Shown: piece after piece, positions 107-33,742 of the stretch | How positions within the stretch are numbered: the stretch's first letter is position 1 | How the letters are laid out: every line of letters begins with the position of its first letter | Assembly: GCF_001870225.1 (NCBI RefSeq) | Contig: NZ_CP017675.1 | Span: 2,479,360-2,523,198 of the forward strand | From: Gloeomargarita lithophora Alchichica-D10 | Lineage (GTDB): Bacteria; Cyanobacteriota; Cyanobacteriia; Gloeomargaritales; Gloeomargaritaceae | Direction of reading: 5' to 3' | DNA: 43,839 bases | Translations under genes and position numbers: made by a program | The notes under the pieces: generated by a model | The model's database searches: none | The model's input: only the letters and a program-made list of their open reading frames with translations | Told to the model about the DNA's origin: nothing

Positions 107-115
107 GCGTAACTA

Positions 116-503
116 TAGCAATATGACACGATTTACGGGCAGAAATTCCGCAGAACCAAGTACAGGGGCAATACTCCTGCGACCGCTGTTCAAAATTGAA
201 TTAGGATTGCTATAGCAATATGACACGATTTACGGACAGAAATTCCGCAGAACCAAGTACAGGGGCAATACTCCTGCGACCGCTGTTCAAAATTGAATTA
301 GGATTGCTATAGCAATATGACACGATTTACGGGCAGAAATTCCGCAGAACCAAGTACAGGGGCAATACTCCTGCGACCGCTGTTCAAAATTGAATTAGGA
401 TTGCTATAGCAATATGACACGATTTACGGACAGAAATTCCGCAGAACCAAGTACGGGGGCGGCGCCCCTGCGACCGCTATTCTAAAACCAATTAAGATTG
501 CTA
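116..503. mobile_element. Tandem array of four 97-bp family A miniature elements
   Basis: Four head-to-tail units (116-212, 213-309, 310-406, 407-503) total exactly 388 bp. Each starts TAGCAAT and ends ATTGCTA, which are inverted repeats. The whole block is flanked by one TA on each side (114-115, 504-505). Units 1 and 3 are identical, unit 2 differs by a single G-to-A, and unit 4 shares that A but differs in its right half. Inner junctions read ATTGCTA-TAGCAAT with no extra TA. No protein is encoded. This looks like a MITE that was amplified in tandem after one TA-targeted insertion. Confidence 0.9.
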
Positions 504-599
504 TAGTTTTTGCTCAGCCACTGTTGCAACTTCATGCCCCGCTTGTCGTAGCAAACGTGCGCCCCTCTGTCCCAAATTTTCATCAAGCTTCAACCTCAC
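501..599 (-). pseudogene. Truncated DUF5615 PIN-like toxin
   Basis: A 32-codon frame starts with GTG overlapping the stop of the upstream DUF433 gene (ATGTGA). The peptide begins VRLKLDENLGQRGARLLRQA and continues GHEVATVAEQKL, the N-terminus of DUF5615 PIN-like proteins, which are normally about 110-120 residues and partner DUF433 proteins. The stop TAG is formed by the end of the repeat array. Removing the array and one TA adds only five codons before another stop, so the array alone did not truncate the gene. It keeps the first acidic residue of a PIN-like fold but should be inactive. Confidence 0.75.
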
Positions 600-4944: not shown

Positions 4945-4985
4945 GTTTTGCAGGGATACCGCCCCGTAATTGGTTCTCAGTACTA

Positions 4986-5149
4986 TAGCAATTCTCACTG
5001 AGTATAGCTACGCCACGCTAATGCCTACGCCACGCTATCGCTAACGCTATGAGAATAGCGGTCGCAGGGGGGCACCCCCCGCACTTGGTTCTGTAAAATT
5101 TTTGTATGCCTACGGCACGCAGGCTAACGCCAATCGGGTGGGATTGCTA
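4986..5149. mobile_element. Complete family A element, 164-bp subtype
   Basis: Starts TAGCAATTCTC and ends GGGATTGCTA, with TA on both sides (4984-4985, 5150-5151). It contains the shared core in the orientation GCGGTCGCAGG...CTTGGTTCTG and copies of a CTACGCCACGC motif. It sits just after the 3' end of the mazF-like gene (stop at 5156). No coding capacity. Confidence 0.85.
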
Positions 5150-5155
5150 TAGCAC

Positions 5156-27252: not shown

Positions 27253-28974
27253 ATGAATCCCGAAGAAACGAAACAGGAGCAAGATGAATCTATTGCCGCC
27301 GAGCAGTCTTTCCTTGATGAGGATAATATCTCACAGGCAAAACAGCGACTTTACCAAATCCTTTTAGGGAACCCGACAGATGATCAATCACGGCAGTTAT
27401 TGCGGCAAATATGCCAAAAAAATAGTTCTAGTTTTGGGCAGAACAAACAAAAGTTCATAGAAACTTTAGAGCAAGAATACCAAGTAATTTATGAGAAAAC
27501 GATTACCCTAGCGTCTGTCGGGTGGCGCTATTGCCTAGGACTGGATTCAGAATATATTGACCCTTCATTACAGGCTATTTCGTCAGCCAAAAAACAAGAA
27601 ATCAAACCAGAAGTCGTCTTAGAAAAAGCACCCTATACCGCGGCTCAATACCTAGAGCAAATTTTAAGCATTGGTGATATTCAATCCCGGTGGCACTATG
27701 TTAATGAACTTGTATATGCTAAAAATAAGGAACTTCTGGCCGATGACTTTGCGGATATTCATGACTGCGAATTATTAGATTCTCTGAAAAGCACCCTATG
27801 CGGCTCCAAACTCAATATCCTGATTTTTGGTGCTGGTGTCGTGGGACTTGCATTTGCCAATGCCCTGAAAACTTCCCTGGGTGAATTGGTTAATATTTTG
27901 ATGATTGAAAATCGCATTTACACCAAACACATTAAGAAGCCCTACACCCGCAATTGGCTAACCAACATATCCAATGCTCTGTATCAAGACTTTTTTGACC
28001 CTAGAGTGGTCGCCATCCTCCGTGAATTTGGGAATGGGGATTATATGGGCGTGCCCCTGAATATTCTGGAGACCCTACTTTTTCTTGCGAATAGAGCCCA
28101 GGGAACTCGATTTTATTTCGATGATAATTTTAAGTTATCCTTGATTAAGGAAACCGATACCGATATTGTCATTGACGCAACGGGTGGCAAGCTAAATATC
28201 ATTGATGCAAATGCTTTAGACGATGGTTCTTTCGTTGTTAAGCTAACCGCTCATCCCCAATTTGGTTCGTATTACAAAGGTTTTGGGATTACCAATTCCA
28301 GTGATATGCCTGCGATAGGTTTAACGCTTTCTCAAAAAGGCTCTTTTTTTTACCCAAGTTTAGCGGGAAAACAACTCAAATCTGCAATGGTTAAACTGAC
28401 GGATGTACCCTTGGAACTCCAGGAGAGTCTCCTGGCTCAGGTAACCCCAAACAATAGTGATGGCTTAATTTATATTTGGCCGGGTAAATTACGCCCAGAA
28501 CTTAATAGCCTTTTAATTCTCATTAATCTTTCTATATCGGATTATCATCACCTTAATCAATTATTATCACAAAAAACTGACTTAAACTCGTTTATTATGC
28601 AGAATTCAAAAAAATTGGAGCTTGACCCAAGGATATTAGAGTTTTTTCAAAAAATCCTAGAATATGATGTTGGGAATAATTCTAAAATTGAGTCACCTTT
28701 CCTCTATGAACCTCGCATACATATATAGCAATATGACACGAGTTACGAACGGAAATTCCGCAGAACCAAGGGCGGGGGATGCCCCCCTGCGACCGCTGTT
28801 CTAAATTCAAATAAGATTGCTATAGTTGATAAAAAACCGTTGCGTATTTTTGGGTGTCCAATTTTTCGGATTGGTGACAGTGTATTTAACGGGCATCCCA
28901 AGGTTGGTAACGGCCTTGGCTCACATTTGGTTATTGTTGGTGAGTTACATGATTTGATTCTGGCAATAAGTTAA
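27253..28974 (+). pseudogene. FAD/NAD(P)-binding protein gene split by a family A element
   Basis: The first part (ATG 27253 to stop 28728, 491 residues) has a helical N-terminal region (about 1-190), then LNILIFGAGVVGLAFANALK, a Rossmann dinucleotide motif, and VIDATGG, as in FAD-dependent monooxygenase-like proteins. The stop lies in the repeat end. Removing 28726-28824 joins ...PRIHI to VDKKPLRIFGCPIFRIGDSV and FNGHPKVGNGLGSHLVIVGE in the same frame to stop 28974, giving 540 residues with the family's C-terminal GD motif. The gene is therefore broken by the element, or gives two pieces. GTG 27244 is an alternative start. Substrate unknown; it follows the FHA-ABC gene by 50 bp. Confidence 0.8.
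28726..28822. mobile_element. Family A element, 97 bp, inserted in a FAD-binding gene
   Basis: Starts TAGCAATATGACACG, ends AAGATTGCTA, exactly 97 bp as in each unit of the 116-503 array. TA duplications flank it (28724-28725, 28823-28824). Precise removal with one TA (99 bp) restores the host reading frame. Internal hairpin GGGGGATGCCCCCC differs from the array units. Confidence 0.95.
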
Positions 28975-29071
28975 GGCTAAAGCCGCACCGAGAGATGATT
29001 TATAAACATGGATACACAACCTTTTTGTCTAAAACGACGATACAGAGTTTTTCACGCTGATGGGTTGCGGG

Positions 29072-29095
29072 CAAGGAACTCAAGCCCCTTGTTTT
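29072..29095. repeat. Palindromic repeat related to 4925-4944
   Basis: CAAGGAACTCAAGCCCCTTG followed by TTTT is partly self-complementary and shares GGGCAAGG...CAAGCC...CTTGTTTTGCA with the palindrome at 4925. The interval 28975-29252 otherwise holds no gene that I can support. Confidence 0.5.
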
Positions 29096-29145
29096 GCATA
29101 TATTCTAGCCTTAAATCAGTATGTCATCTACAAAAAAACGCTGTA

Positions 29146-29230
29146 TAGCAATCCTACTTGAATTTTGAACAGCGGTCGCAGGGGTATCGCCCCCGTCACT
29201 GGTTCTTCTGAATATCTGTTCGCCAATAAG
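29146..29230. mobile_element. Degenerate family A element, one end
   Basis: TAGCAATCCTACTTGAATTT follows a TA at 29144-29145 and leads into the core (CAGCGGTCGCAGGGG, CACTGGTTCTTC), in the opposite orientation to the array. The other terminal repeat is not recognisable. Confidence 0.65.
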
Positions 29231-29252
29231 GCTTTTCTAACCCCTGATTTTT

Positions 29253-29459
29253 TTAAGCCTTGATATAAACCACGGCGCCCCGGGACAGGAAAAAACGCTC
29301 CTGCTGCCCATTCATTAGACACAAATAGCTGGGGTCTTGCCAGAGGATTTGCCCCGCCAGCACATCGCCGGTAGTGAGCTTGACCTCCACCCCTTTTTTC
29401 TCTTGAATGTAGGTCTGCACCTGACGCACGCTGGGCAAACCCGTATCCAGTTCCGCCAT
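29253..29459 (-). CDS. hfq: Cyanobacterial Hfq homologue
   Basis: 68 residues: MAELDTGLPSVRQVQTYIQE, then VEVKLTTGDVLAGQILWQDP and a C-terminal strand RFFLSRGAVVYIKA. This is the short cyanobacterial Hfq (Sm-fold), which keeps the fold but lacks the classic distal RNA-binding residues. In Synechocystis it binds a pilus ATPase and is needed for motility rather than sRNA chaperoning. GGGGAAA precedes the ATG. It follows the SPOR-like gene by 50 bp on the same strand. Length and motifs fit the family well. Confidence 0.88.
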   Translation of the reverse strand: MAELDTGLPSVRQVQTYIQEKKGVEVKLTTGDVLAGQILWQDPSYLCLMNGQQERFFLSRGAVVYIKA

Positions 29460-30511: not shown

Positions 30512-31131
30512 TTAGGGTGTGTCATCAATTAGCTAAACTAGAGGAGTGGAAAGGTGACAATCAAAGAAGCGAGATGACCAGTGGGAGCGGGTCAAGAACC
30601 TACTGCCAGGCAGAGAAGGAACCGTCGGAGTCACTGCCAAAGACGATCGCTTGTTTATTGAGGCGGTGTTGTATCGCTACCGAGTAGGCATCCCTTGGCG
30701 AGATTTGCCAGAGTGTTTTGGGGATTTTCGAGTCGTACACACCCGTTTTAGCCGATGGTCAAACTTGTGTCTTGGATGGTGCGGATGTGCTACTGGAATA
30801 CTTATAGCAATTCTAATTGGGTATGGCTACGCCACGCAGGCTATTGGGTGGGATTGCTATAGTTGCCGATACGCTACTGGCTGATAAAGGCGAGGATGCT
30901 GATGAGCGTGTGATTGAGAACGAGGATAAAACGGCTGTGATTCCACCGAAGCGCAATCGGACAATAGGGAATATGACCAACACTTGTACCAAACTCGACA
31001 TTTGATTGAGAACTTGTTCGCCAAAACAGTATCGAGCCATTGCTACCCGCTAGGATCAACGAGCAACCAATTCCCTAGGGGCTATTTATCTGGCTGCTTC
31101 CCTCCTCTGGCTTAATTGATGACACCCTCTA
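30512..31131. mobile_element. IS5-family insertion sequence remnant
   Basis: Imperfect terminal repeats TAGGGTGTGTCATCAATTAG (30513-30532) and, reversed, TAGAGGGTGTCATCAATTAA (31131-31112). Inside are pieces of an IS5-type transposase in several frames: DQWERVKNLLPGREG, YRVGIPWRDLPE, then VADTLLADKGEDADE, VIPPKRNR, and ATNSLGAIYLAASLLW near the right end. The middle catalytic part is deleted, stops and frameshifts are present, and a 55-bp family A element is nested inside. It is dead; about 620 bp against an expected 800-900 bp. Confidence 0.85.
30805..30859. mobile_element. Family A mini-element, 55 bp, nested in the IS remnant
   Basis: TAGCAATTCTAATTGGGTAT to GGGTGGGATTGCTA with TA on both sides (30803-30804, 30860-30861). 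It lacks the GGTCGC core and keeps only the two end segments and a CTACGCCACGC motif, so it is an internally deleted form of the 164-bp subtype. It was inserted after the IS5 copy arrived. Confidence 0.85.
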
Positions 31132-33478: not shown

Positions 33479-33742
33479 AGGACACCTCTAAAAATAGGTC
33501 GCAGGGGGGCACCCCCGGACGTGGTTCGCCAAAATATCGGTTCACCAATTGGGTGAAATTGCGATATTTGAATTTTGCATGGCGGTCGCAGGGGGGCACC
33601 CCCCGGACGTGGTTCGCCAAAATATCTGTTCGCCCATTGGGTGAAATTGCGATATTTGAATTTTGCATGGCGGTCGCAGGGGGGCACCCCCCGGACGTGG
33701 TTCGCCAAAATATCGGTTCGCCCATTGGGTGGGATGGCTGTA
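33479..33742. mobile_element. Chimeric miniature element with three tandem cores
   Basis: The left end AGGACACCTCTAAAAATAGG is family B (nearly identical to 10349). The right end ATTGGGTGGGATGGCTGTAG matches family A ends (18 of 20 bases to 30841-30862). Three core repeats begin at 33497, 33584 and 33672, period 87-88 bp, each GGTCGCAGGGGGGCACCCCC(C)GGACGTGG in two adjoining pieces, then TTCGCCAAAATATC. A minus-strand open frame across it is only a repeat shadow. Confidence 0.8.

What the first reader, a model, noticed from the sequence alone, without database searches (positions are those of the whole stretch)
28724..28824. A 97-bp element splits a FAD-binding gene, and exact removal restores the frame
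Removing 28726-28824 (element plus one TA) joins PRIHI to VDKKPLRIFG with no frame change, and the restored C-terminus carries the GDS...GNGL motif expected for this fold. TA duplication plus TAGCAAT/ATTGCTA ends point to an IS630/Tc1-mariner type transposase acting in trans. Seen directly; the transposase family is inference, as no such transposase is in the window.
Basis: partly seen in the sequence, partly recalled or inferred. Interest (0 to 1): 0.75.

Follow-up and report, generated by a model that had tools for sequence, protein, structure and literature searches.

The report
Tiny transposon truncating a cyanobacterial gene
A 97-base parasitic DNA element, present in at least 58 full copies in this cyanobacterium's genome, has jumped into a probable FAD-binding enzyme gene and cut off its last 49 amino acids; this is an ordinary event, well documented here, although the only matching jumping enzyme left in the genome looks dead.

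Summary
Window 28726-28822 is a 97-bp non-coding element with 7-bp perfect ends (TAGCAAT/ATTGCTA), flanked by a TA duplication. The genome (3.05 Mb, one contig) holds 58 full-length copies with perfect TATAGCAAT...ATTGCTATA ends; 20 copies, including this one, are identical but lie at different sites. [quoted passage not shown] Two congeneric genomes carry the gene uninterrupted (544 and 547 codons), with no insert at the site. The severed C-terminus alone matches their profile (E = 8e-19). The gene loses 49 residues, including a conserved GDS...GNGL motif. Frame restoration proves little: 97 + 2 = 99 = 33 codons. Truncation comes from a TAG that is the element's own first three bases. The missing transposase exists elsewhere in the genome: an IS630-family element of about 1.15 kb with TA-flanked TAGCAATCC ends. 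Its first catalytic Asp is Asn, unlike all 25 aligned homologues; the copies in the two relatives are damaged differently, one by a nested MITE. Mobilisation in trans is well supported for the past, but probably no longer occurs from this genome's own copy. New member of a known kind.

The parts
27253..28728 (+). Truncated reading frame, 491 aa: probable FAD-binding protein, cut by the insertion
   Evidence: 67% / 65% identical to uninterrupted homologues in G004 / G002; weak NCBIfam similarity to UbiH/COQ6-type FAD hydroxylases
28724..28725 (.). Target-site duplication TA, left copy
   Evidence: the G004 empty site has a single TA in the aligned ATA codon; TA flanks on every perfect-ended copy
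28726..28822 (+). 97-bp MITE with perfect 7-bp ends TAGCAAT / ATTGCTA (9 bp counting the flanking TA) and a G+C-rich hairpin in the middle
28726..28728 (+). In-frame TAG stop, the first three bases of the element, ending the truncated protein
28823..28824 (.). Target-site duplication TA, right copy
28825..28974 (+). Severed 3' end of the gene (49 codons plus TAA) carrying GDSVFNGHPKVGNGLGSHL
   Evidence: this piece alone matches the homologue profile at positions 490-546, E = 8.4e-19; 76% / 73% identical to G004 / G002

Best explanation
A non-autonomous 97-bp MITE transposed into an (A/C)TA(G/T) target inside the 3' part of a single-copy gene for a probable FAD-binding protein. It duplicated the TA and stopped translation at once with the TAG at its own end. 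The transposase was supplied in trans by an IS630-family element of the same genome whose ends share TATAGCAAT and subterminal sequence with the MITE. The insertion is young: the element is identical to 19 other copies, and the severed 3' end shows no decay. Shown: element, TSD, copy number, empty site in relatives, loss of the C-terminus, and an IS630 with matching ends. Inferred: that this transposase moved it, that the gene product is inactive, and that the asparagine in the resident transposase has ended mobility.
For: 58 full-length perfect-ended copies in this genome and 106, 21 and 11 in three congeners. 40 copies read in detail are all exactly 97 bp, 20 of them identical, at unrelated flanks. 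Palindromic target preference (A/C)TA(G/T). Uninterrupted homologues of 544 and 547 codons without the insert. The severed 3' piece matches the homologue profile independently. A distant homologue in another family ends in GDSHYIGNPKTGNGLANHL. IS630 at G000:2156843-2157989: DDE_3 E = 1.8e-15 and helix-turn-helix domains, TA-flanked TAGCAATCC ends, two overlapping frames at an A11 run. In G002 the IS end TAGCAATCCTAAATGAGAATAGAAC is identical over 25 bp to MITE ends listed for G004 and G002. The window MITE's right end matches the other G002 IS end at 14 of 18 inner positions; 1 of 20,000 random 18-mers does as well.
Against: The only full-length partner in this genome has Asn for the first catalytic Asp, so it cannot be shown to move anything now. 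The window MITE's left end matches that IS only at the outer bases and a subterminal GAAC. The MITE core does not come from that IS, so it is not a simple internal-deletion derivative. Mobility was not observed directly.
Confidence: 0.88

Rival explanations
1. The insertion is a MITE, but it was moved by another IS630-type element now lost or decayed, such as the relic near 1,158.4-1,159.2 kb whose left end is TATAGCAATATGATTTGA.
For: The relic's left end matches the left end of a G000 MITE subfamily (TATAGCAATATGATTTGAATC...) over 18 bp; the surviving IS has TAGCAATCC ends and a changed catalytic residue.
Against: The relic is heavily decayed (about 73-78% DNA identity to the surviving IS, in fragments), while 20 MITE copies are identical, which suggests a recent active source.
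Confidence: 0.3
2. The gene naturally ends near residue 491 and the downstream 49 codons are an accidental open frame.
For: The truncated frame is long and the downstream piece is short.
Against: Homologues continue through these residues, and the piece alone scores E = 8.4e-19 against their profile.
Confidence: 0.01
3. The element is a reversible switch: precise excision restores the protein in part of the population.
For: 99 bp is a multiple of three and a clean excision would restore the gene.
Against: IS630-type excision would be expected to leave a footprint (established knowledge of Tc1/mariner elements, not tested here); the resident transposase lacks a catalytic Asp; the same element lies in about a dozen other probable genes.
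Confidence: 0.03

Closest known systems
RUP of Streptococcus pneumoniae, mobilised by IS630-Spn1 (reviewed in PMC2229807)
   Same: About 100 bp (107 bp), 9-bp terminal repeat, TA target duplication, about 100 copies, stops in all six frames, ends shared with an IS630, insertions into IS elements
   Different: Unrelated host; RUP is described as intergenic, whereas here about a third of the sites examined lie in reading frames
Nezha, a MITE of cyanobacteria (Zhou et al. 2008, cited in PMC10969869)
   Same: Active MITE described in cyanobacteria
MITEs of Anabaena sp. 90 (PMC3542288)
   Same: 147 copies, 15 of them splitting ORFs and making pseudogenes
   Different: Called type II there because no IS with matching ends was found; here an IS with matching ends is found

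Membership tests
MITE | Short, no transposase gene | tested here: met
   97 bp, stops in six frames
MITE | Terminal inverted repeats | tested here: met
   TAGCAAT/ATTGCTA perfect, 9 bp with the flanking TA
MITE | Target-site duplication and empty site | tested here: met
   TA on both sides; empty site in G004 with one TA; insert also absent in G002, where the codon is ATG
MITE | Multiple dispersed copies | tested here: met
   58 full-length copies, 20 identical including the window's
MITE mobilised by IS630 | Ends shared with an autonomous IS630 of the same genome | tested here: met
   TATAGCAAT on both; 25-bp identity among G002/G004 copies and the G002 IS; for the window copy only partial identity beyond the first 9 bp
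MITE mobilised by IS630 | Movement by that transposase | not testable with these tools
   needs a transposition assay
IS630 family (partner element) | DDE_3 domain, helix-turn-helix, TA target, about 1.1-1.2 kb | tested here: met
IS630 family (partner element) | Intact catalytic triad in this genome's copy | tested here: not met
   FLNECH instead of DECH at the first position; Asp in all 25 aligned homologues
Nezha | Nezha terminal repeat sequence | not tested
   the original paper was not read; only a citation of it was found

The most novel reading that the evidence does not exclude
A MITE family orphaned after a recent burst: in three related genomes the only full-length partner IS630 found has decayed independently (Asp to Asn here, a nested MITE in orfA in G002, a deletion near one end in G004), while 21 to 106 perfect-ended MITE copies remain. 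MITE bursts may thus have been self-limiting through loss of the transposase, partly by MITE insertion into it.
Probability: 0.35. Interest if true: 0.45.

Novelty: new member of a known kind. Interest (0 to 1): 0.3.

Why it matters
It explains a broken gene and a genome-wide repeat in a lineage related to Gloeomargarita, and names the likely partner transposase, which is often missing for bacterial MITEs. Twenty identical copies with a partner IS that looks dead make the question of how MITE bursts end testable. As a biological principle it is not new; RUP/IS630-Spn1 is the precedent.

Tried and rejected
Rfam: no RNA family in 28500-29400. Conserved RNA structure: the element folds better than shuffles (z = -3.4), but there are no compensatory changes across 14 copies, so no claim is made. 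Structure prediction of the intact homologue: mean pLDDT 36 with three sequences, unusable, so no fold search was run; the FAD-binding assignment rests on motifs and weak NCBIfam hits. Sequence search of solved structures: the transposase found none, the homologue profile only a weak ferredoxin-NAD reductase match, E = 0.004. The search for related loci with the truncated protein found nothing in genome contigs. The two other DDE_3 genes of the genome (861 kb and 1,646 kb) have no matching TAGCAAT pair at their ends.

Full report
Observation. The sequence at 28716-28835 reads CATACATA-TA-[TAGCAAT...ATTGCTA]-TA-GTTGATAAA. The element is 97 bp (28726-28822) between two TA dinucleotides. Joining the flanks in a script gives one frame of 540 residues across PRIHI/VDKKPLRIFG. 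The truncated product is 491 aa and ends at a TAG that is the first three bases of the element. Because 97 + 2 = 99, the frame is kept whatever the site; the informative fact is what lies downstream.

Copies. The window is G000:C1:2479360-2523198 of a 3,049,282-bp single-contig genome. A pattern search for perfect TATAGCAAT...ATTGCTATA ends finds 58 full-length copies here, 106 in G002, 21 in G004 and 11 in G005, and none for the reversed control. The 40 copies read in detail are all exactly 97 bp; 20, counting the window's, are identical. Flanks show a palindromic preference, (A/C)TA(G/T) with A at -3 and T at +3 as the commonest bases. In a sample of 242 genomes of the class, full-length similarity is confined to the same genus; three genomes outside it give short weak matches only. 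G002 has the contig length of OV696605.1, Gloeomargaritales cyanobacterium VI4D9. That the window is from Gloeomargarita lithophora itself is my guess from genome size and was not tested.

Empty site. G004 and G002 encode the gene without interruption (open frames 544 and 547; 67% and 65% identity to the truncated protein). The DNA alignment shows the insert missing at the exact site; G004 has ATA there, hence a single TA, and G002 has ATG. A profile of the three proteins finds the severed 3' piece of the window genome on its own at profile positions 490-546, E = 8.4e-19. A distant homologue in another cyanobacterial family ends in GDSHYIGNPKTGNGLANHL, so the motif lost here is old. Only one copy of the gene was found in this genome. 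The 3' piece is as conserved as the rest (76% against 68% identity to G004) and has no stop or frameshift before the native stop, which fits a young insertion. The protein's identity is weakly known: similarity to UbiH/COQ6-type FAD hydroxylases at E about 1e-3, a GxGxxG-like GAGVVG, and the GDS...GNGL motif. 'Probable FAD-binding protein' is as far as this goes.

Other genic copies. Of 37 independent sites read, 13 including this one give a reading frame of at least 220 codons across the joined flanks, against at most 76 as they stand; one of the 13 (L021) has a largely masked flank and is less certain. Halves scanned separately agree for a LysR-type regulator (profile positions 2-170 and 178-206 of the same domain) and for a Cas3-like helicase (DEAD part before, Cas3 C-terminal part after). 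A DNA methylase and a glutathione-transferase-like gene matched before the element only.

Transposase. Of three DDE_3 genes in the genome, one lies in a 1.15-kb element, G000:2156843-2157989, bounded by TATAGCAATCCTA and its complement, with helix-turn-helix and DDE frames overlapping at a run of 11 A. Homologues with TATAGCAATCC-type ends are widespread in cyanobacteria. In G002 one IS end and MITE ends agree over 25 bp, which ties the MITEs to this IS subgroup. The window MITE's own ends share TATAGCAAT with the IS; its right end matches a G002 IS end at 14 of 18 further positions, which 1 in 20,000 random 18-mers does; its left end is more divergent. In this genome the first catalytic Asp is AAT (Asn) at 2157378-2157376, whereas all 25 aligned homologues have Asp. 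The G002 copy carries a nested MITE in orfA and the G004 copy a deletion near one end. Flanks of the three copies are not homologous, so they are separate insertions.

Mechanism. Most likely: cut-and-paste insertion into a TA by an IS630 transposase acting in trans on the MITE's ends, recently, during a burst that produced identical copies; truncation by the TAG in the element's end; and later loss of the transposase. The insertion, the truncation and a partner with matching ends are shown. The transposase's action, the loss of gene function and the end of mobility are inferred.

Known or new. It works like RUP with IS630-Spn1 in pneumococcus (107 bp, 9-bp ends, TA; PMC2229807), and MITE-split genes are known in Anabaena sp. 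90 (PMC3542288). Whether it belongs to Nezha could not be tested. I file it as a new MITE family of a known kind.

Noticed in passing
window 113-506: Four head-to-tail copies of a related 97-bp MITE with period exactly 97, abutting as ATTGCTATAGCAAT without an extra TA between them; how such arrays form is unexplained. Similar arrays with periods 84 and 119 lie at L036 667-1024 and L052 689-988.
   Followed up: partly
window 29144-29230: A partial, related element (TATAGCAATCCTACTTGAATTTTGAACAGCGG...) about 170 bp downstream of the split gene, without its right end.
   Followed up: no
window 33497-33731: Tandem 88-bp repeats sharing the core GGTCGCAGGGGGGCACCCCCC with the MITE but without TAGCAAT ends; a similar core with TATAGCTAA-type ends is nested in the relic IS of L081. 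The core recurs with different ends.
   Followed up: partly
window 4984-5152 and 30803-30863: Other sequences bounded by TATAGCAATTCT... and ...GGTGGGATTGCTATA with different interiors, possibly further element types using the same ends.
   Followed up: no
L046 (G000:1406200-1407600): A related MITE (12 differences) splits a Cas3-like helicase gene, so a CRISPR system of this genome may be disabled.
   Followed up: partly
L077 (G002:958294-961881), positions 1201-1298: A MITE with the same type of ends lies inside the orfA of its presumed partner IS630.
   Followed up: partly
G004:C2:15422-15907 (L061, L187): A second, partial copy of the FAD-binding gene's 3' part, with an internal TGA, on a smaller contig of G004.
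   Followed up: no
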